From contig SZXW01000010.1 in assembly GCA_005862285.1 (NCBI GenBank), positions 248,001-312,000 of the forward strand: a DNA stretch of 64,000 nucleotides. Reading direction: 5' to 3'. The notes under the pieces are model-generated. The model was not told the DNA's origin. It did no database searches and saw only the letters and a program-made list of their open reading frames with translations. The position numbers and the translations under genes were made by a program. The stretch is from Chlorobium sp. GTDB lineage: Bacteria; Bacteroidota; Chlorobiia; Chlorobiales; Chlorobiaceae. Positions 795 through 39,958 of the stretch are shown piece after piece (position 1 is the first letter of the stretch; each line of letters opens with the position of its first letter).

Positions 795-1907
795 TTACTG
801 TTTGGTCTTTTCCGAAACCGGAAGCCTGATGATGACGGTCGTGCCCTTCCCCTTCAGGCTTTCTATTGCAATGGTGCCGTTGTGGCTTTCGATAATTTTT
901 TTCGTGATGGAAAGACCAAGACCTGTCCCATCCGGTTTCGTGGTGAAGAACGGTACGAAAAGCCGGTCCAGATTCCCGAGATCGATACCGGGGCCACTGT
1001 CATGAATGCGGATGCTCAAGCTTACACTGTCGGAAGCATCGACAGCAATGGAAACGCTGCTTCCCGCCGGTGCCGCCTGAAGCGCGTTCAGGATAATGTT
1101 CAGAAAAGCCTGGCGCAGTTTTTCGCTGTCAGCCATGATCGGAACCTGCTTGCCGGTTGGTTCGAGAACTATTTCCACATGATGATTTCTCGCATCGTTT
1201 GTCAGGAGGGTTGCAATGGTTTCAAGCTCTTCCATGACATTGCAGGGCTGCATGTCGGAAGGCCGGGGACGAACCATCTGCAGGAACTCGCTGACAACCC
1301 GGTTCAGGCGCTCGGTCTCCCTGATCTGGATATCGATGAACTCATGTTTCGGGTTATCCGGCGGGTAATCATCCCTGAGTATTTCAGCCGTCCCCCTGAT
1401 GGAACCGAGCGGGTTCCGCACTTCGTGGGCCAGCACGGCAGCAAGCTCGACCATGGTTGAAAGTTTCTCGGCCCTTCTAAGCTGCTCTTCGATCGCCATG
1501 ATCCTTTCAGACTGCGCCTTGAGTTTGCTGTACGATATTTCAAGGCCTTCGGCGGTTTTTTTCAGCTCGGCCGTGCGTTCCTTTTCAAGCTGGGATAAAA
1601 AACCGGTCAGGCCTCCGACGATATTGAAAAGCAGTATTTCGAGATATTTCCCTGTTTCCATGGAGAAATCGCCGCCCCACTGGTAGAGAATGTGAGGTGC
1701 ATACACGATACTGACGATGACTGAGCAGAACAATCCTCCGCGCAGGCCGAACCAGAGTGCGGAAAGGATGATCGGGATATAGTAGAGGCGCTGAAAAATG
1801 TCATGGAGATAGGAAGCGTGAAGCGGCGTGAAATAATGGAACATGCTGATACCGGTTACGGCAACCGTTAAAATCAGGAGCCTTGTATAATCCGGCTTTC
1901 CAATCAT
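795..1907 (-). CDS. Membrane sensor histidine kinase (NtrB/ZraS-like)
   Basis: H-box [20 protein letters not shown]-box NALQAAP, G-boxes DSGPGIDL / GTGLGLSI; N-terminal TM segments; adjacent to the sigma-54 regulator. Confidence 0.9.
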
Positions 1908-2111
1908 TTCATTACAGCATGATGTTGAACCGCTTTCAGGAGCATAAACTATCTGAAGAGATTATAAAATTCAGAAAAAATAAAGATCGCTTCGAATAAG
2001 TTGGAAGCATCACTCATCCGGTGATCCTCACGATATGCATGTGACGTGATTTATTTATATTTTATATGCAAAATAAAGCTGTTATCAAAAACCATGTAAA
2101 AGGAGACGGTC

Positions 2112-2363
2112 ATGTCTATAGAGCAGGCAAAAGCTTGTATCGAAAAAATGAAATTCGACAAGGTTTTCCGGGAATATATCTTGTCGATTGAAGATACCGA
2201 AGCCCGGATGCGGGCAATCCACGATGCCGGTTTTTCCATAACAATGGAGGAAATCCGGGAAGCGTCCCGTGAGATGGACCATTACGGCGACATTTCCGGC
2301 AGCGGGATGGACCTTGACAACAACCCTTCAGGGGCATCATGCTACTGTTTTCTCCTTGGGTAA
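2112..2363 (+). CDS. Nif11-like leader RiPP precursor peptide (83 aa), C-terminus PSGASCYCFLLG
   Basis: N-terminus MSIEQAKACIEKMKFDKVFREYILSIEDTEARMRAIHDAGFSITMEEIREA is Nif11-like; RBS AAAAGGAGA; short Cys-containing tail; next to rSAM maturase and NHLM exporters. Confidence 0.85.
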   Translation: MSIEQAKACIEKMKFDKVFREYILSIEDTEARMRAIHDAGFSITMEEIREASREMDHYGDISGSGMDLDNNPSGASCYCFLLG

Positions 2364-2487
2364 ACCGGGGCGTTATCATCATTACTATTGAAAAACGGCA
2401 GAGAGATATGTCAGGAACTCCTTAAATGTGCAAGACTGACGTACAGCCCGGCAGCACCGTGGGCAAATCTTTTCTTTTCCGGAATTG

Positions 2488-3963
2488 TCACGATATCGGC
2501 ACACATGCCCCAGCATAGGAACCCTGTTTTGCAATCGGGTTACCGACCCCCCTGTGGCGGTGTTGTTCAGGGTGCACCAGGCGATACCCTTGCTTCATAT
2601 CAGGCACTTCCTTCTTTCCCAGCAGGGCATCACAGATTTCCTTCGTTCGCCTTTGATCGAGATATGATTCAAGATCCTGTAGAAGCGAGTACCTGACAGG
2701 AGAGCAGCATTCGAGCCCTTCCTCGCCGAACTGTTTCATTCTCATTCTTTTATTGACGCATCCTCCTCCACAGACCGGAAAACAGGAACATTCCATACAC
2801 GTTTTATCATTGAAAGGATCTGCAACGGTAGCGTACCGGGCAACGATATCCTTATTCCTGACCGCCTCCTCGTCATAGACAGAACCGATAACCATCTTGC
2901 CGTTCCCAACATCTTCCAGGCACTTGTACATTTCTCCTCTTGGTCCGATCACATAACCGAAACGGGAAGTTGCGGTGCAGGTATTCACGGCTCCGCTCTG
3001 CGGGAAATTTCCTCCATGTGGAACAATCCCGCTGGTTTTATATCCGTCAAACAAAAAATCCTTCCATTCGCTTACACTCAAACCGGAATGAGAACCATAA
3101 GGATGAGAAAGAGGAATGGTAAGGTAACCGGGACGGACTACAAGATTTTTACCGGCATACCGTTCCAGCAACTCTTTTCTCAATCCGGCAAATTCATCAC
3201 GGTTATATTTGTCTACATTCACCCGGATTGCAACCCGGCCATTCCAGTTGGAGTTCATCAGCATATCGATATTGTCGAGAATATTTCTGTAGGTCGGACC
3301 GCCGCCTGTCAGCATCCTTCTGCTGTTGTGGGTCGCTTCGCTGCCATCGAGTGTAATCTGTATTGTGGTGATTTTCAGGTTTGCAAGTTCATCGATCCAC
3401 TTCCCGTCAAGCAGGTAGGCATTGGTAATGAGACCGGCATTGTCGAAATCAGGGTAAAGCTCCCGGAACCTTGCGGTAAGGCCCGTGACAACCTCGAAAG
3501 CAAGCGTAGGTTCACCTCCATACCAGTTAACCGTAAGGCTCTTTGCCTCCTTATGCTTTTTTATGAAGGAAATCAGAGCGTCCATTGTATTTTCGCTCAT
3601 TATCTCCGGATCGCTCTGGCTATGCTCGAAGCAATAGGAGCAACAAAAATTGCAAGAGAGTGTCGGGCAGATGGTAAGCCCGAGCGTTGATGTATTGAAA
3701 CAGGCTGCATTGCGGTCATATTGAAGTTGCATCAATTGCAACAGTTCATCGTCCCTCTGTGCAAGGAAACCATGTTCTTCAAGAAATGCCGGAAATTCGG
3801 AATCCTTTTGAGGTTCAAAGCATTCACGACCATCACGAAGCCCGGCTGCTGTTTCGTAATGTTCTTTGTCGAGCTCCAGCATAAATCCTGACAGCGCATT
3901 GTAAAGAAAGAAGCCTGACTTTTCAGAATGGAAAAGGGTATTGTAAAAGGACCAGGGTTTCAT
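2488..3963 (-). CDS. Radical SAM/SPASM peptide maturase (nif11-class)
   Basis: CNFCCSYC (CX3CX2C) motif; SPASM-type Cys-rich C-terminus CMECSCFPVCGGGCVNKRM; start chosen at MKPWSFYN (ORF extends to 4020). Confidence 0.88.
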   Translation of the reverse strand: MKPWSFYNTLFHSEKSGFFLYNALSGFMLELDKEHYETAAGLRDGRECFEPQKDSEFPAFLEEHGFLAQRDDELLQLMQLQYDRNAACFNTSTLGLTICPTLSCNFCCSYCFEHSQSDPEIMSENTMDALISFIKKHKEAKSLTVNWYGGEPTLAFEVVTGLTARFRELYPDFDNAGLITNAYLLDGKWIDELANLKITTIQITLDGSEATHNSRRMLTGGGPTYRNILDNIDMLMNSNWNGRVAIRVNVDKYNRDEFAGLRKELLERYAGKNLVVRPGYLTIPLSHPYGSHSGLSVSEWKDFLFDGYKTSGIVPHGGNFPQSGAVNTCTATSRFGYVIGPRGEMYKCLEDVGNGKMVIGSVYDEEAVRNKDIVARYATVADPFNDKTCMECSCFPVCGGGCVNKRMRMKQFGEEGLECCSPVRYSLLQDLESYLDQRRTKEICDALLGKKEVPDMKQGYRLVHPEQHRHRGVGNPIAKQGSYAGACVPIS

Positions 3964-4127
3964 CTGTTTGAATATCAGCAGGTTATATGTTTTATATTGG
4001 AAATATATAGCCATTAACAATAAATTAAACGTTAAAAGGACTGCGATAACTTGCGTTTTTTATAGCAGGGACATATAAACCCTGTTTTTTGCAGCCAGTT
4101 TCCAATCTCTGTTTCAAACATTCCTTC

Positions 4128-5246
4128 ATGGCCATCGAGTTCAGAAAGGAAGCTCTCAAAAAGCTCAGTTCCCCTGATGATCTTGACCGTCTGATCCCGG
4201 TTACGGACCGGCGTGGCTGGATAGCGCTTCTTTCAGCCGCAATTTTCATCCTGGCAATGACTGCCTGGCTCATTTGGGGCAAAATTGATACGACAGTCGA
4301 GGGACAAGGTATTACCATGGGTGCCGAGACCGTACAATCGATTTCATCCCGTTCAGCAGGTACCGTTACCGATTTCAATCTCAAGGATGGACAGACGGTT
4401 CAGGAAGGTGAAATTCTCGGTATCATCGAACAGCCTGAACTGAAACATGAATTTCATTCCGCGTTCTCGACCTATGAGTTTCAGCTCTCTCATCAGGCAG
4501 AGAAACGTTCATTTCTGAAAAGGCAAATTGCACTGATGGAGCTTAAGGCTGCAAGAGTTCATGAGCAACCCGGGAAACCCACGTTGAATAACAGAACCCG
4601 GGCTTCGACCGAACAATCGATCATGGAGCTCAAAAACAGCCTTTACAAACTTGACAACGACCTTGCCGACGCAGAAAGAAACCTTGAAAAATCAAGGGAG
4701 AATTATAAATGGCGTTCAACTGTCATTTCTCCTGTAACCGGAATGGTGACAGAAATCAAAGTTACAAATGGACAACCGGTTTCCCCCGGTATTGAACTGC
4801 TTCAGGTTGAACCTTTCATAAACAACAAGTCCGGTGACATAAAACTTGACCTGTACATCGCTTCGGGAAATGCGAAAAAAATCAGGAAAGGTATGGAAGC
4901 ATATATTGCGCCCTCGATCGTAAAACCTGAGGAATATGGGTATATCGTCGGAAAAGTGCTTTATATAAGCGAATACCCGGTTTCCGCACAATCCATTGCT
5001 GCAGAAATAAGAAACGAGGAGCTTGCCCGTAAATTCGCCCTTTCAAGCCCCCCCTACAAAGTGACTGTCAAACTCCTCAGGGACCGTTCCAACAGCAGCG
5101 GTTTCAGGTGGACTTCCGGCAGAGATCCCCGGACAACCATCTCATCCGGTATTCTCTGTACGGGAAAGATTGTGGTCGAAGAACAGTCTCCAATCGAACT
5201 GATAATTCCGATGATGAAAAATACTCTGTTTCCCGATTTCATGTAA
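4128..5246 (+). CDS. HlyD-family membrane fusion protein (NHLM bacteriocin secretion type)
   Basis: Single N-terminal TM, biotinyl-lipoyl-like segments (VQSISSRSAGTVTDFNLKDGQTVQEGEILGII), directly upstream of peptidase ABC exporter. Confidence 0.87.
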   Translation: MAIEFRKEALKKLSSPDDLDRLIPVTDRRGWIALLSAAIFILAMTAWLIWGKIDTTVEGQGITMGAETVQSISSRSAGTVTDFNLKDGQTVQEGEILGIIEQPELKHEFHSAFSTYEFQLSHQAEKRSFLKRQIALMELKAARVHEQPGKPTLNNRTRASTEQSIMELKNSLYKLDNDLADAERNLEKSRENYKWRSTVISPVTGMVTEIKVTNGQPVSPGIELLQVEPFINNKSGDIKLDLYIASGNAKKIRKGMEAYIAPSIVKPEEYGYIVGKVLYISEYPVSAQSIAAEIRNEELARKFALSSPPYKVTVKLLRDRSNSSGFRWTSGRDPRTTISSGILCTGKIVVEEQSPIELIIPMMKNTLFPDFM

Positions 5247-5357
5247 CGACGATATTTCCAACAGTTTTCTCTTATCTGCATGTTCACGAAAGAGCCGATA
5301 AATTATGAAGAACTCAACTGAAATACTTTTCAACAGTTACGACAGAGGAATACAAGC

Positions 5358-7535
5358 ATGAGCTTCATGCTCTTTCCTTCCGAAAAACTCTGGGATGAAG
5401 CCAGGATCAAAACACCGACCATCCTCCAGATGGAAGCTGTCGAGTGCGGAGCCGCCTCGCTGGGAATGGTTCTTGCCTGGTTCGGATGTCATGTCCCGCT
5501 GGAGAAGCTCCGGGCCGAATGTGGAGTAACCCGTGACGGCAGCAAGGCAAGCAGCCTGATCAAAGCTGCCGGAAAATACGGCCTAGAAGCAAAAGGATGC
5601 AGGCTGGACCTTGACGATCTCCACAGAAAGAAACTTCCCATGATCCTGTTCTGGAACATGTACCATTTCGTCGTGCTCGAGGGCTTCAGGAAAGGATACT
5701 ATTACATCAACGATCCTGCATCGGGCCAGAGAAAAATCACATTGAATGAGTTCAGCGACTCATTTTCCGGAATTGCCATTACATTCGAGCCAACTGCCGA
5801 TTTCAAAAAGGGAGGACGTCCATTCAGCCTCCTGAAAGCTTTACAGAAAAGGGTGTCGGGAATGGAAAAGGCAATTACCTTCATCATTCTTGCTACAGTC
5901 CTGCTTGTACTTCCCGGACTGGTAGTTCCTTCATTTCTGAGAATATTCATCGATTACGTCCTTGTAAAAAGAATGACCGACTGGATCAGACCGCTCTTGC
6001 TGGGCATGCTTCTGACAGCTCTTTTTCAGGGTTTCATGACATGGCTGCAGCAGTATTACATACTCAGGGCCGAAACAAAACTTGCGCTTGCATCGTCCGC
6101 AAAATTCTTCAACCATGTCTTCGCCATGCCGATGCGGTTTTTCACCATGCGTCAGGCTGGGGAAATTGCCAATCGGGTGCAGTTGAACGATCAGGTTGCG
6201 TCACTGCTGGCAGGCGAACTCTCTTCAAAATCCCTCAATGTGCTCCTGATCTTTTTTTATGCTCTCCTTATGCTCAGGTATGATGCCATCCTCACTGCCG
6301 GAGCTATAGTGATAGCTGGTCTGAATGCTGCCGCGCTTTTCTATGCATCGAGAAAACGCATTATCCTTAGCCGGAAATTCCTGCATGACAATGGAAAGCT
6401 TATGGGTACGACCTATTACGGTATCAGGACTATCGAAAGCCTTAAAGCATCGGGAGGTGAACAGGATTATTTTTCCAGATGGACTGGACTTTTCGCCAAT
6501 ATGGTAAACGGACGCCAGCAGCTTCAGATCGCAACCGTTTTTCTTCTCGCTCTTCCCCCGTTCCTTCAGTCGCTTGGAAACATAGCCATTCTAACCGTCG
6601 GGGGGTTGCGTGTCATGGAAGGAAACCTGACAATAGGCATGCTTGTCGCCTTCCAGAGCCTCCTGCTCTCATTCCTTGCCCCGGTCAACCAGATGGTATC
6701 CCTCGGACAGAAACTTCAGGACACTCAGGCCTGCCTGCAAAGGCTGGACGATGTAATGGAGAACGAGAGCAAGCTCTCGGCTGACCATATGGAAAGTGGC
6801 AAAGAGTTCGAAAAACTGACGGGCGATATCGAGTTGAGAAACATTACTTTCGGCTATAATCCTCTTGAACCGCCACTTATAGAAAATTTCTCCCTGAAGC
6901 TCAGGCCTGGAGAACGGATTGCTCTTGTAGGAAGCTCGGGTTCGGGCAAATCCACAATTGCAAAACTTGTAGCCGGACTTTATGAGCCCTGGAGCGGTGA
7001 AGTGCTTTTCGACAATAACCGGAGAAAAGATATTCCTCGTAATCAGCTGGCTTCATCAATAAGTATGGTTGATCAGGAAATCACTCTTTTTGAAGGAACG
7101 ATAGCGGAAAACATCGCCATGTGGGATATGACACTCCAGCATGATGAGATAACCCGGGCGGCTATGGATGCCGCAATCCATGATGTGATCATTGCGAGAA
7201 CTGGTGGATATCAGTCGGATCTGAGCGAAGGAGGCAGGAATTTCAGCGGCGGTCAGCGCCAGAGGATCGAAATTGCCCGGGCACTCTCATATAACCCTTC
7301 CATACTGATCCTCGACGAAGCGACAAGCGCCCTGGACCCGACGACGGAAAAAATAATCGATATGAATATTCGAAGGAGGTCGTGTTCCTGCCTGATCATA
7401 GCCCACAGGCTCAGCACAATCCGTGACTGCGACGAAATTATCGTTCTTGAAGGCGGAAAGGTCATTGAACGGGGTACCCATACCGCTCTGATGAAAGCCG
7501 GAGGTACATATGCCGGACTGATCGCAAAAGGATAG
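5358..7535 (+). CDS. NHLM-type peptidase-containing ABC exporter (C39 peptidase/permease/ATPase)
   Basis: C39 motif QMEAVECGAASLGMVLAWFG; TM region; Walker A GSSGSGKST; FSGGQRQR; LDEATSALD. Confidence 0.93.
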   Translation: MSFMLFPSEKLWDEARIKTPTILQMEAVECGAASLGMVLAWFGCHVPLEKLRAECGVTRDGSKASSLIKAAGKYGLEAKGCRLDLDDLHRKKLPMILFWNMYHFVVLEGFRKGYYYINDPASGQRKITLNEFSDSFSGIAITFEPTADFKKGGRPFSLLKALQKRVSGMEKAITFIILATVLLVLPGLVVPSFLRIFIDYVLVKRMTDWIRPLLLGMLLTALFQGFMTWLQQYYILRAETKLALASSAKFFNHVFAMPMRFFTMRQAGEIANRVQLNDQVASLLAGELSSKSLNVLLIFFYALLMLRYDAILTAGAIVIAGLNAAALFYASRKRIILSRKFLHDNGKLMGTTYYGIRTIESLKASGGEQDYFSRWTGLFANMVNGRQQLQIATVFLLALPPFLQSLGNIAILTVGGLRVMEGNLTIGMLVAFQSLLLSFLAPVNQMVSLGQKLQDTQACLQRLDDVMENESKLSADHMESGKEFEKLTGDIELRNITFGYNPLEPPLIENFSLKLRPGERIALVGSSGSGKSTIAKLVAGLYEPWSGEVLFDNNRRKDIPRNQLASSISMVDQEITLFEGTIAENIAMWDMTLQHDEITRAAMDAAIHDVIIARTGGYQSDLSEGGRNFSGGQRQRIEIARALSYNPSILILDEATSALDPTTEKIIDMNIRRRSCSCLIIAHRLSTIRDCDEIIVLEGGKVIERGTHTALMKAGGTYAGLIAKG

Positions 7536-7537
7536 AT

Positions 7538-9772
7538 TTGCCCATGGAAACCGGAACAGAACATCTGAATAAACAGACGGCAGGAAAAAATTCAGGAAAG
7601 CGCTTTGCCGAAAAATCTCTTTTCCGGGAGGAAAGTTACCAAAAAGCTCTCGAAAGCCTGGCAGGTATCCTTGAAAAAGACAAAACAGGGTCCTTTCCGT
7701 TATATTCCGATCCTCTCCTTGCCGCATGCGTCCTGGTAGGAAATGCCACCGATATCGTCATCAGTGCGCCGCCTCAGGAAACGGACCCTTTCCTTGAGGA
7801 TCCCCTTCAGTTGATCTGCCGGCATTCAGGTATCCGGATAAGGAAAGTAAATCTTTCAAAAGACGGTCCGTGGTGGAAACAGGAGAACGGGCCGCTTCTT
7901 GCCTACCGGGGTCCCTGCCGGAATCCTGTCGCCCTCATTCCTGGCCGCAAAGGGTACATGATGATCGATCCTCAAACCAGAGAGACATTCATTGTTGATG
8001 CTGACCTGCAAAGTGAAGTTGATACAGAAACCGCCTGGGCTTTCTACAGGCCATTCCTGGACAGGGTACTGAACCTTCGGGAAATCCTCCGCTTCGGTAT
8101 TTCCGGAAGCAGATCCGATATCGGCAGCACTATCCTGCTCGGTATGGCAGGAGCATTGATCGGCCTGTTGACTCCGGTAATGACCGGTATTCTCTTCGAT
8201 ACGATCATTCTCCAGTCATCAAGAGAACAACTGCTTCCCTTTGCAATAATCCTTGCCGCCAGTGTGACAGCTGCCTGCGGATTCGATCTTGCAAGGCAGA
8301 TATTGGTAACGAGAGTGCAATCCCGCCTGGATATAAAACTCCAACCGGCATTCATAGACCGCCTGCTCAATCTCCCCAGCATCTTTTTCAGAAATTTTTC
8401 CGCAGGAGACCTTGCTAACCGGATCCTCGGCATTTCCAGGATCCGGGAGACCCTGAGCAGTGCAGTTATGTCCGCTCTTCTCGGCATGCTGTTCGGTTTC
8501 CTGAATTTTTTCCTGCTGTTTTTTTACAGCTGGAAGCTCGCACTTGTTGCAGCTGCTCTTACAGGTCTGCTTATCGGTATTACCGTTCTGACAAGTTACC
8601 GGCAACTGCGGTTCAAAAAGCTCCTGTTTGAAACCCAGGGAAGTATCTCCGGGCTCCTGGGCAATCTCCTGACCGGAATTGCCAAAATAAGGATTACCGG
8701 CACGGAAAAGCATGCATTTGTACAATGGGCCGGAAAATTCAGAAAGGAACGTGACCTGACCCTGCAGGCAGGAGTTCTCAAGAACATTCTTGATGTAACT
8801 GCAGCTTCATTTCCGGTTATAACCATGGCATTCATCATTTTTACTGCCGGAAGCCTGTTAACCGGAGAATATCTCACATGCGGCTCGTTCATTGCTTTCA
8901 TGACTGCTTATACGACCTTTCAGACAGCCCTTCTGCAATCGACGCTGACCATCATCGCAAGCCTCGACATCATTCCCCTCTACGAACGCATCAAACCGGT
9001 GCTCGATACCCTTCCCGAAACGACCCAGACCAGGACACAGCCTGGAAAACTGACAGGGAAGATAGAATTGCAAAGCGTCAATTTCAGTTATTCCACAGAA
9101 GGTCCCCAGGTACTTCACGATATTGAACTGAATGCGGAACCAGGAGAGTTCATTGCAATAGTCGGCAGCTCAGGTTCGGGAAAATCAACCATGATGAGAC
9201 TTCTTCTCGGCTTCGAACAACCTGATTCCGGCACTGTATTCTACGATGGCATCGACCTCGCAACCCTGAATGTGCAGGCGGTACGCCGTCAGATCGGCGT
9301 CGTTATTCAGAATGCGCAGTTGCAGCCGGGTTTCATCCTGAACACTATTGTCGGCTCTTCGGCACTGACAGTCGAAGATGCCTGGGAAGCGGCTAAATTG
9401 GCGGGTATTGACGAGGATATCCGAAAAATGCCAATGGGCATGTATACCATCATCAGCGAGGGAAGCGAAACCATATCGGGAGGACAGAAACAACGCCTTC
9501 TGATTGCAGGAGCACTCGTTCGAAAACCCGGAATGATTTTTTTCGACGAAGCAACAAGCGCTCTTGACAACCATACCCAGGAGATAATCAGCAGAAGCCT
9601 GGAAGAACTCAAGGTCACCAGGGTCGTTATCGCCCACAGGCTCAGCACCATCCGCAAGGCGGACAGGATCTACTGCCTCGATGAGGGCCGGATTGTCCAG
9701 CAGGGCACCTATGAAGAACTTATGTCTCAGGAAGGACTTTTCAGGGAACTCGCCAACCGGCAGATTGCATGA
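7538..9772 (+). CDS. NHLM-type ABC exporter permease/ATPase with atypical N-terminal domain
   Basis: Six-TM region; Walker A GSSGSGKST; ISGGQKQR; FDEATSALD; 2 bp after the preceding gene. Confidence 0.9.
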   Translation: MPMETGTEHLNKQTAGKNSGKRFAEKSLFREESYQKALESLAGILEKDKTGSFPLYSDPLLAACVLVGNATDIVISAPPQETDPFLEDPLQLICRHSGIRIRKVNLSKDGPWWKQENGPLLAYRGPCRNPVALIPGRKGYMMIDPQTRETFIVDADLQSEVDTETAWAFYRPFLDRVLNLREILRFGISGSRSDIGSTILLGMAGALIGLLTPVMTGILFDTIILQSSREQLLPFAIILAASVTAACGFDLARQILVTRVQSRLDIKLQPAFIDRLLNLPSIFFRNFSAGDLANRILGISRIRETLSSAVMSALLGMLFGFLNFFLLFFYSWKLALVAAALTGLLIGITVLTSYRQLRFKKLLFETQGSISGLLGNLLTGIAKIRITGTEKHAFVQWAGKFRKERDLTLQAGVLKNILDVTAASFPVITMAFIIFTAGSLLTGEYLTCGSFIAFMTAYTTFQTALLQSTLTIIASLDIIPLYERIKPVLDTLPETTQTRTQPGKLTGKIELQSVNFSYSTEGPQVLHDIELNAEPGEFIAIVGSSGSGKSTMMRLLLGFEQPDSGTVFYDGIDLATLNVQAVRRQIGVVIQNAQLQPGFILNTIVGSSALTVEDAWEAAKLAGIDEDIRKMPMGMYTIISEGSETISGGQKQRLLIAGALVRKPGMIFFDEATSALDNHTQEIISRSLEELKVTRVVIAHRLSTIRKADRIYCLDEGRIVQQGTYEELMSQEGLFRELANRQIA

Positions 9773-10945: not shown

Positions 10946-11710
10946 TTATTCCACGATTCCCGCCCTCAGGTTCAGAGGCCATGAAACGGTTTTGACTTCC
11001 TTCGGGTTTCCCCAGGCCTGCCTGAGTTCCGCATCCATCATCGCAAGAATATCGATACCGGTCTTGGAGCGCATCTGACCGATTGCCGACCAGGTTGACA
11101 GGTAACCGAGAAAACGATCCAGCTCCCAGTTCGTTTTCATCCTGAATTCCGGAACGGCTATCTCCCTCAAAGGAAAAGAGAGGGAACGGTAACCGTCATC
11201 GACATGCCTGCGTTCACGAGGCCAGTATGGGGCAAGAATATCGCAATAGAGATGCAGCAGCAGTTCATCGACATTTTCATCAACCGTCACGAGCCCGTAA
11301 GAAATTGCAGCAAATACAGCATCCTGCGTTGCTACACGCCTGATTTCCGGATAGAAGCGGCCGATGTCGAACCAGTGCAGCGACTGGGCAGCAACGATGA
11401 GATCAACGCTGTTGCCATAAAGTCCCGTTTCTTCAGCCGCCGATACTTTATAGGTCACTTTTGCATCCCTGACGGCACTTGCTATCTGTGATTTGCTCGG
11501 ATCGACGGCGTATACTCTTTTAAAATGCGCTGCCAATCCGATCGAAGCCTGACCCGTACCGCAACCGCAATCGAGAGCAACATCGTGCTTCGGAGCAATC
11601 CCGGCAAGCCATTTGAAGAGCTCCCGGGGATAAACCGGCCTGAATTCCCTGTACGATTGCGATACATTGGAAAAGTAATCCTTGTATGAACGTTTCATAT
11701 CGACATCCAT
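10946..11710 (-). CDS. Class I SAM-dependent methyltransferase
   Basis: Motif VALDCGCGTGQASIGLA and downstream methyltransferase-like segments; start approximate. Confidence 0.82.
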   Translation of the reverse strand: MDVDMKRSYKDYFSNVSQSYREFRPVYPRELFKWLAGIAPKHDVALDCGCGTGQASIGLAAHFKRVYAVDPSKSQIASAVRDAKVTYKVSAAEETGLYGNSVDLIVAAQSLHWFDIGRFYPEIRRVATQDAVFAAISYGLVTVDENVDELLLHLYCDILAPYWPRERRHVDDGYRSLSFPLREIAVPEFRMKTNWELDRFLGYLSTWSAIGQMRSKTGIDILAMMDAELRQAWGNPKEVKTVSWPLNLRAGIVE

Positions 11711-11919
11711 GCCGAAAGTATTCATGATTGTAATGATATGATTATAAACAAACTGCTGAACATGCTTCCGGCTTTTATCAATCAGGCGATCAAAGGTATC
11801 AGTCCGGCTTGGCACATATTGTCATTCCGGGACCGAAGCAGTCGAACAAAGGATCCATAACCCTTTTTTATGTCGCCTGAAAGGAGCTTCGGGTTGTCCG
11901 GTCGAGTTGTTCGAAAGTG

Positions 11920-12048
11920 TCAATATTCGATCCGGACCGGTTCTTTTTGTTTTTCCGGTGTTCGAAGCAATACGATCAGACCGCATCCGAACAGCATAAA
12001 GATTGTTGACACCAATGTTATCAGGGCATTTTTCATATTCATGTTCAT
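11920..12048 (-). CDS. Small single-TM membrane protein (42 aa), not in supplied ORF track
   Basis: Manual translation MNMNMKNALITLVSTIFMLFGCGLIVLLRTPEKQKEPVRIEY*, preceded by GGAGAGG. Confidence 0.45.
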   Translation of the reverse strand: MNMNMKNALITLVSTIFMLFGCGLIVLLRTPEKQKEPVRIEY

Positions 12049-39526: not shown

Positions 39527-39559
39527 GGCTTCTTCAGAATCTGTCAGAGGTCTTGTCAG

Positions 39560-39958
39560 TGGAGATGGCGGGAGTCGAACCCGCGTCCAGAACATTGCTC
39601 TATAAAGCTACCACACTCATCTCAGGTGTTCGGTGTTTCGCGAAACGGAACTACACCTGTAAAGGCCGTTTCACTATCCCTGTGTTTACCCTTCCCCTTT
39701 CCAGGGAAAAAGAAGAAGGAGCCTACTTGCGCGAACCGAAGCTCAAGCGCGGGTTATGCCATCCGCCGGATTCAGAGTAAGCGCATCCCCCGGACGGACG
39801 ATGGCTGGTGAATTAACTTTTGCTAATCAGGCAGCCATTGCATACGAATGATCGTCTGCATGTAATAGGTACATAGACTTCTTTAACGAGTCCATCCATG
39901 CTGAAACTCGGAGTGCAACTCCATATCACACCTGCCCTGTCGAAAGCCTGTCATCCCC
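39560..39958 (-). ncRNA. ssrA: tmRNA, tag peptide (A)ADDHSYAMAA
   Basis: 5' GGGGATGACAGGCTTTCGACAGGG; tag ORF GCAGACGATCATTCGTATGCAATGGCTGCCTGA; 3' GGACGCGGGTTCGACTCCCGCCATCTCCA; acceptor stem pairs GGGGAUG/CAUCUCC; CCA not encoded. Confidence 0.96.

What the first reader, a model, noticed from the sequence alone, without database searches (positions are those of the whole stretch)
2112..9772. Single-precursor Nif11/radical-SAM RiPP cluster with an unusual SCYCFLLG tail
Seen: an 83-aa Nif11-like precursor, an rSAM/SPASM maturase on the opposite strand, an HlyD adaptor, a C39-peptidase ABC exporter and a second NHLM-type ABC exporter. Known: nif11-class leaders with rSAM maturases and NHLM export are a recognised RiPP architecture. 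Inference: the C39 peptidase cuts after GA in PSGA|SCYCFLLG (or earlier, after SGSG), releasing an 8-aa peptide with two Cys and a hydrophobic FLLG end. rSAM/SPASM enzymes often install thioether or C-C crosslinks at such residues. I recognise no characterised product with this core.
Basis: partly seen in the sequence, partly recalled or inferred. Interest (0 to 1): 0.8.

Follow-up and report, generated by a model that had tools for sequence, protein, structure and literature searches.

The report
Nif11 peptide cluster with swappable core
A green-sulfur-bacterium relative carries a real gene cluster for making, chemically modifying and exporting a small peptide; its unusual tail is mostly not conserved in relatives, because the peptide gene and the working half of its modifying enzyme differ sharply between otherwise near-identical copies of the locus.

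Summary
The genes are as described. Precursor, rSAM/SPASM, HlyD, C39-ABC and second ABC are intact and match TIGR03798, TIGR03794, TIGR03796 and TIGR03797; the rSAM fits no named maturase family above cut-off. The rSAM starts at ATG 3963 (491 aa), and AlphaFold shows an RRE, radical-SAM barrel and SPASM, nearest the thioether enzyme CteB. A sixth gene was missed: orf321, a two-TM dCache-like protein, found in 11 of 86 Chlorobiaceae genomes, all with this exporter. The 8-aa SCYCFLLG product is unlikely: alignment and the C39 rule place the cut at DISGS|G, giving a 19-aa core. The tail is hypervariable; YCF[LV]LG recurs in one other species of 86. Cys is fourfold enriched in cores, so a Cys thioether is the best guess, untested. 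New: against the nearest relative the locus is about 95% identical except window ~1995-3660 (precursor plus rSAM catalytic/SPASM part, not the RRE), 50-74% identical, with conflicting phylogeny (AU p=0.006): core and catalytic part look exchanged as one cassette in a fixed export chassis. Exporter and orf321 persist in a species whose cassette has decayed. New variant of a known kind.

The parts
2112..2363 (+). Nif11-leader RiPP precursor, 83 aa
   Evidence: TIGR03798 6.5e-15, PF07862 over cut-off
2112..2303 (+). predicted leader, 64 aa, ending DISGS (double-Gly-like site)
   Evidence: aligned with ITGG/ISGG/VVGG ends of related leaders; C39 -4/-7/-12 rule; cleavage itself not shown
2304..2360 (+). 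predicted core GMDLDNNPSGASCYCFLLG, 19 aa
   Evidence: inference from the leader alignment; relative G071 core AQDRDNMLSMCGLSYCFVLG has the same start and tail
2337..2360 (+). SCYCFLLG tail; YCF[LV]LG shared with one other species
   Evidence: pattern search of 86 family genomes: two Nif11 matches, four matches outside Nif11 ORFs
2488..3963 (-). radical SAM/SPASM maturase, 491 aa
   Evidence: PF04055 3.7e-16, SPASM domain over cut-off, below every rSAM equivalog cut-off shown; AlphaFold pLDDT 87.8
3700..3963 (-). RRE-like leader-binding domain, residues 1-88 (three strands, three helices)
   Evidence: AlphaFold secondary structure; 92% identical to G008
3631..3654 (-). radical SAM CX3CX2C motif, residues 104-111
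   Evidence: invariant in 24 and in 39 homologues
2704..2979 (-). SPASM cysteines C329-C420 (seven)
   Evidence: invariant in 24 and 39 homologues
4128..5246 (+). HlyD-type adaptor (NHLM)
   Evidence: TIGR03794 4e-83; conserved start M[AT]IEFRKEALKKLSSPDDLDRL
5358..7535 (+). C39-peptidase ABC exporter (NHLM ABC1)
   Evidence: TIGR03796 1075 bits, PF03412 7e-36; only one over cut-off in the genome
7538..9772 (+). second NHLM ABC protein (ABC2)
   Evidence: TIGR03797 898 bits
9824..10789 (+). orf321: membrane-anchored dCache-like protein without output domain
   Evidence: in 11/86 family genomes, all with NHLM ABC2; dCache_1 in 7 of 13 members, best 5e-4
1995..3660 (.). exchanged cassette: upstream region, precursor, rSAM barrel and SPASM; differs sharply from the 95% identical relative G008
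   Evidence: nucleotide identity profile, breakpoints, AU test

Best explanation
The locus makes and exports a Nif11-leader RiPP. Likely course: the N-terminal RRE of the rSAM binds the leader; the rSAM/SPASM enzyme modifies the C-terminal core, most likely forming a Cys-based thioether cross-link at one or both Cys of SCYCFLLG; the C39 domain of ABC1 cuts after DISGS; ABC1/ABC2/HlyD export a 19-aa core (GMDLDNNPSGASCYCFLLG), with an outer-membrane channel from elsewhere. orf321 is a constant membrane accessory or sensor of the export unit. Precursor plus catalytic/SPASM part of the rSAM form one exchangeable cassette; RRE, exporter and orf321 form the fixed chassis. Shown: genes, domains, conserved order, hypervariable Cys-rich cores, sharp identity breakpoints, conflicting phylogeny. 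Inferred: cross-link chemistry, cut site, export, exchange by recombination, role of orf321.
For: Families; order in nine loci. RRE-like strands and helices in the model; closest fold and profile matches are CteB. Seven SPASM Cys, as in QhpD, CteB and Tte1186 (PMC10352776). Best sub-threshold NCBIfam matches are Cys-peptide maturases: TIGR04463, Clo7bot, CefB, PapB. Cys 6.7% of core against 1.6% of leader residues; Cys in the last three residues of 21 of 63 cores, p 0.0025 against shuffles. Where cores are similar, Cys are kept: G091/G096 four of four, G005/G066 three of three. Cut site. Cassette: HK 91, HlyD 97, ABC1 96, ABC2 95, orf321 94% aa identity to G008 but rSAM 67 and precursor 51; third-codon identity 84-91% against 51-55%; identity falls at ~1995 and recovers at ~3660; RRE part 92%, rest 63%; G008 catalytic part groups with G071/G082 (100/97), window+G008 rejected p-AU 0.006.
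Against: No mass data; SPASM enzymes also make C-C links and other changes, and the enzyme passes no maturase equivalog cut-off. 18 of 63 cores lack Cys, so either not all are substrates of this enzyme type or Cys is not the only target. The double-Gly site here is GS, and -12 is Arg. The cassette case rests mainly on one genome pair; G008 is reported at 7% contamination, though both junctions lie in one contig with intact flanks on both sides. orf321 could not be modelled (pLDDT 41).
Confidence: 0.6

Rival explanations
1. The rSAM is not a thioether synthase: it forms a C-C (cyclophane-like) link among aromatic residues (YCF) or another radical change, and Cys are kept for other reasons.
For: Aromatics are also enriched in cores, 14.6% against 5.7% in leaders; SPASM enzymes of several chemistries resemble it, including SuiB (C-C) and TigE; 18 of 63 cores lack Cys.
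Against: Nearest relative by profile and fold is CteB; nearest families act on Cys-rich peptides; where cores are similar, Cys are what is kept.
Confidence: 0.22
2. The product is the 8-aa SCYCFLLG released after PSGA, as first proposed.
For: GA is an accepted double-Gly-like dipeptide for C39 peptidases (PMC10885120).
Against: Pro, Asp and Ser at -4, -7 and -12 break the recognition rule; aligned leaders end at DISGS; the G071 core has the same D.DN start but no GA before its tail.
Confidence: 0.06
3. The main cargo of this exporter and orf321 is a set of trans-encoded Nif11 peptides (for example the pair beside a hybrid histidine kinase on contig C9), used as signals; the local precursor is an optional extra.
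For: One NHLM ABC1 but six Nif11 ORFs in the genome. G034 keeps exporter and orf321 while precursor is gone and rSAM is a remnant, and still has the kinase-linked peptide. orf321 is a dCache-like sensor-type protein.
Against: No receptor shown; the neighbouring kinase may be chance; conserved pairing of precursor and rSAM with the exporter in nine loci.
Confidence: 0.12
4. The divergent segment arose by fast evolution in place (diversifying selection), not by exchange.
For: Core and enzyme would co-evolve; G071 and G082 share a 90% identical rSAM but different cores, so cores also change without the enzyme.
Against: Third-codon positions diverge as much as the rest, junctions are abrupt, one inside a coding region, and the tree of the segment rejects window+G008.
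Confidence: 0.15

Closest known systems
Nif11/NHLP precursors with NHLM exporters (Haft, Basu and Mitchell 2010, PMC2887384)
   Same: TIGR03798 leader, TIGR03794/03796/03797 export genes; already noted next to ABC clusters, with N11P and NHLP in Chlorobium luteolum
   Different: There the maturation genes were TOMM or lanthionine types; here an rSAM/SPASM enzyme, plus orf321 and the cassette pattern
SCIFF/ranthipeptide maturases (CteB, Tte1186, PapB)
   Same: RRE, radical SAM barrel, seven-Cys SPASM, Cys-rich substrate; best fold and profile match
   Different: About 19% identity to CteB; long Nif11 leader with double-Gly-like site; no characterised product
TIGR04064 nif11-like peptide radical SAM maturase
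   Same: Named pairing of Nif11-like peptide and rSAM
   Different: 72.9 bits against a cut-off of 518.7: not a member
TIGR04463 rSAM_vs_C_rich
   Same: Best-scoring NCBIfam maturase model, 208 bits
   Different: Cut-off 525, not met

Membership tests
Nif11-leader RiPP with NHLM export | Precursor over TIGR03798 cut-off | tested here: met
   55.1 bits, cut-off 32.3
Nif11-leader RiPP with NHLM export | TIGR03794, TIGR03796 and TIGR03797 next to the precursor | tested here: met
   279.7, 1075.1 and 898.2 bits, all over cut-off
Nif11-leader RiPP with NHLM export | Double-Gly-like cut site at leader end | tested here: inconclusive
   GS in DISGS, aligned with GG in relatives; -4 Ile and -7 Tyr but -12 Arg; cleavage not assayed
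Ranthipeptide/sactipeptide (thioether) system | RRE + radical SAM CX3CX2C + SPASM maturase | tested here: met
   not specific to thioether chemistry
Ranthipeptide/sactipeptide (thioether) system | Cys thioether in the product | not testable with these tools
   needs mass spectrometry
TIGR04064 nif11 rSAM maturase | Score over curated cut-off | tested here: not met
   72.9 against 518.7
TIGR04463 rSAM_vs_C_rich | Score over curated cut-off | tested here: not met
   208.2 against 525
dCache sensor (orf321) | Cache domain over Pfam cut-off | tested here: not met
   dCache_1 in 7 of 13 members, best E 5e-4; window member only sCache_3_2 E 0.09, below cut-off

The most novel reading that the evidence does not exclude
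Green sulfur bacteria keep a fixed peptide-export chassis (RRE, NHLM exporter, dCache-like membrane protein orf321) into which core peptide plus catalytic half of the maturase are swapped as one cassette, with a junction at the RRE/radical-SAM boundary: a natural modular RiPP platform, with orf321 as a constant accessory not previously assigned to NHLM systems.
Probability: 0.4. Interest if true: 0.7.

Novelty: new variant of a known kind. Interest (0 to 1): 0.5.

Why it matters
RiPP engineers try to mix leaders, recognition domains and catalytic domains; here nature seems to have done so at a definite junction, leaving the RRE and exporter alone. That gives a direct, testable guide to which parts must stay matched. 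The constant orf321 links RiPP export to a sensor-like membrane protein and gives a handle on what these peptides of phototrophic bacteria do.

Tried and rejected
First genome-contig scan with the window rSAM found nothing; the second, with the alignment, gave mostly distant rSAMs. Viral-contig scan with orf321: none. orf321 folded alone: pLDDT 41, not used; its alignment found nothing convincing in the PDB. Tail pattern: four of six matches in 86 genomes were not in Nif11 ORFs. The histidine kinase at 795-1907 was rejected as part of the cluster: beside it in G008, not near it in G071/G082. Terminator scan of 1900-4200: none; promoter matches near chance. The idea that the UG4-type RT seen elsewhere drives variation at this locus was dropped: no such RT in this genome. 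No template-type repeat found next to the RT. Literature: no paper held names TIGR04463; none found on Nif11/rSAM in Chlorobium.

Full report
Observation. The rSAM carries CX3CX2C and a seven-Cys SPASM. It begins at ATG 3963, judged by the start MKPWSFYNTLF conserved in its relatives. The genome has 2.6 Mb in 15 contigs and 86 genomes of its family are held.

Neighbourhood. The same order (precursor, divergent rSAM, HlyD, ABC1, ABC2) occurs in G008, G071, G082, G098, G084, G011, G091 and G096. In these a sixth gene follows ABC2: orf321, with a hydrophobic stretch at each end and a middle part that resembles double Cache domains weakly (7 of 13 members, best E 5e-4). It is in 11 of 86 family genomes; all 11 are among the 22 with NHLM ABC2. 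Some relatives have a TolC-like protein between HlyD and ABC1; this locus has none.

Core and cut site. Leaders of the relatives end ITGG, ISGG or VVGG, at the place of DISGS here. C39 exporters cut after GG, GA or GS with hydrophobic residues at -4, -7 and -12 (PMC10885120). DISGS|G has Ile, Tyr, Arg; PSGA|S has Pro, Asp, Ser. So the core is most likely GMDLDNNPSGASCYCFLLG.

Conservation of the tail. Among 86 genomes YCF[LV]LG at the end of a Nif11 ORF occurs in the window and in G071 only, whose core AQDRDNMLSMCGLSYCFVLG also shares D.DN near its start. The closest locus, G008, ends GGYTYWSIC; G082, whose rSAM is 90% identical to that of G071, ends VVNIMIC. Over 63 cores, Cys makes up 6.7% (leaders 1.6%), aromatics 14.6% (leaders 5.7%), and 17 cores end in Cys. 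Similar cores in different species keep their Cys (G091/G096, G005/G066).

The enzyme. The AlphaFold model (39 sequences, pLDDT 87.8) has three strands and three helices in residues 8-88, the RRE pattern described for SkfB and CteB (PMC6231123), then the barrel and SPASM. The best PDB matches by sequence profile and by fold are CteB. Seven SPASM Cys is the count reported for QhpD, CteB and Tte1186 (PMC10352776). It passes no NCBIfam maturase cut-off; the highest scores are to Cys-peptide maturases. Thioether formation is therefore the best guess, not a result.

The cassette. Compared with G008, everything around is close: HK 91% aa, HlyD 97, ABC1 96, ABC2 95, orf321 94. The rSAM is 67% and the precursor 51%, and third codon positions drop as well, from 84-91% to 51-55%. 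The nucleotide profile falls from about 90% to 47% near 1995, in the intergenic region, and returns to 94% near 3660, at the codons of the CX3CX2C motif. Residues 1-88 of the rSAM are 92% identical and 89-467 63%. In the tree of the part after residue 103, G008 joins G071/G082 (support 100/97) and a window+G008 clade is rejected (p-AU 0.006). Exchange by homologous recombination is the simplest reading. Direction cannot be told, and most of the case is one pair of genomes, one of them 7% contaminated. In G034 exporter and orf321 are intact while no precursor is seen and the rSAM is a short remnant (MRPWSCYHTLF..., then stop). Thus the chassis can outlive the cassette.

Mechanism. See Best explanation; cross-link, cut, export and the role of orf321 are inferred. 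orf321 does not vary with the core, which speaks against a core-specific immunity protein; no other candidate immunity gene lies in the exchanged segment.

Known or new. Nif11/NHLM loci, also in Chlorobium, have been known since 2010 (PMC2887384), and thioether SPASM enzymes are known. I found no held paper on this Chlorobiaceae combination. New here: membership of orf321, the cassette pattern with its junction at the RRE boundary, and the corrected core. Verdict: new variant of a known kind, interest 0.5.

Noticed in passing
L073:10210-11175 and 11406-11920; L074:8084-9078; also G097, G074, G016, G026, G032, G006 (not in the window's genome): A UG4-like reverse transcriptase family (PADLOC RT_UG4, 217 bits) sits beside Nif11 precursors: 19 of 23 hits in 12 of 86 genomes lie within 2 kb, most within about 80-175 bp, 18 of 19 in opposite orientation, many only 3' fragments. 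Its 3' end runs into a conserved ~120-nt hairpin-rich element (6 sequences, little covariation) that ends close to the core-coding end of the precursor. UG4 RTs were reported next to fimbrial genes (PMC8934634)..
   Followed up: partly
G000:C1:436912-437127 (L219); L208-L218: Another Nif11 ORF with a near-invariant tail LWGN[RK] in at least 12 genomes, in 11 of them with an ORF bearing a GCPVGCNFC (CX3CX2C) motif next to it. A conserved Nif11/rSAM-like pair, unlike the hypervariable cores..
   Followed up: partly
G000:C9:125172-125665 (L093), L096, L097: Two Nif11 peptides with leaders close to the window's (DISGG|SWLEDIFPSTIWET, NISGG|TWMWDNMEDIFLCPPKY) lie directly beside an 874-aa hybrid histidine kinase and a 401-aa ORF; no related rSAM found in the fetched stretch; similar setting in G034, and the same peptide pair in G008..
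   Followed up: partly
G000:C14:24165-34000 (L094); L071:4290-4958; L180: Cys-rich Nif11 cores (SCCGHTCEN-type) recur in the window's genome, in G082 and in a Desulfovirgula MAG; in the window's genome a different SPASM rSAM (L094:17193-18644) lies nearby..
   Followed up: no
L112:14680-14770: Decayed rSAM remnant at the exporter locus of G034, with exporter and orf321 intact..
   Followed up: yes
L145:2339-11440: A deltaproteobacterial MAG (SURF_52) holds an array of more than ten Nif11 precursors next to a 34%-identical rSAM..
   Followed up: no
L130: A contig binned as a Methanomicrobiales archaeon carries a 45%-identical Chlorobium-type rSAM and a Nif11 precursor: likely misbinning or transfer..
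   Followed up: no
window 39557-39958 (-): tmRNA gene, ordinary.
   Followed up: no
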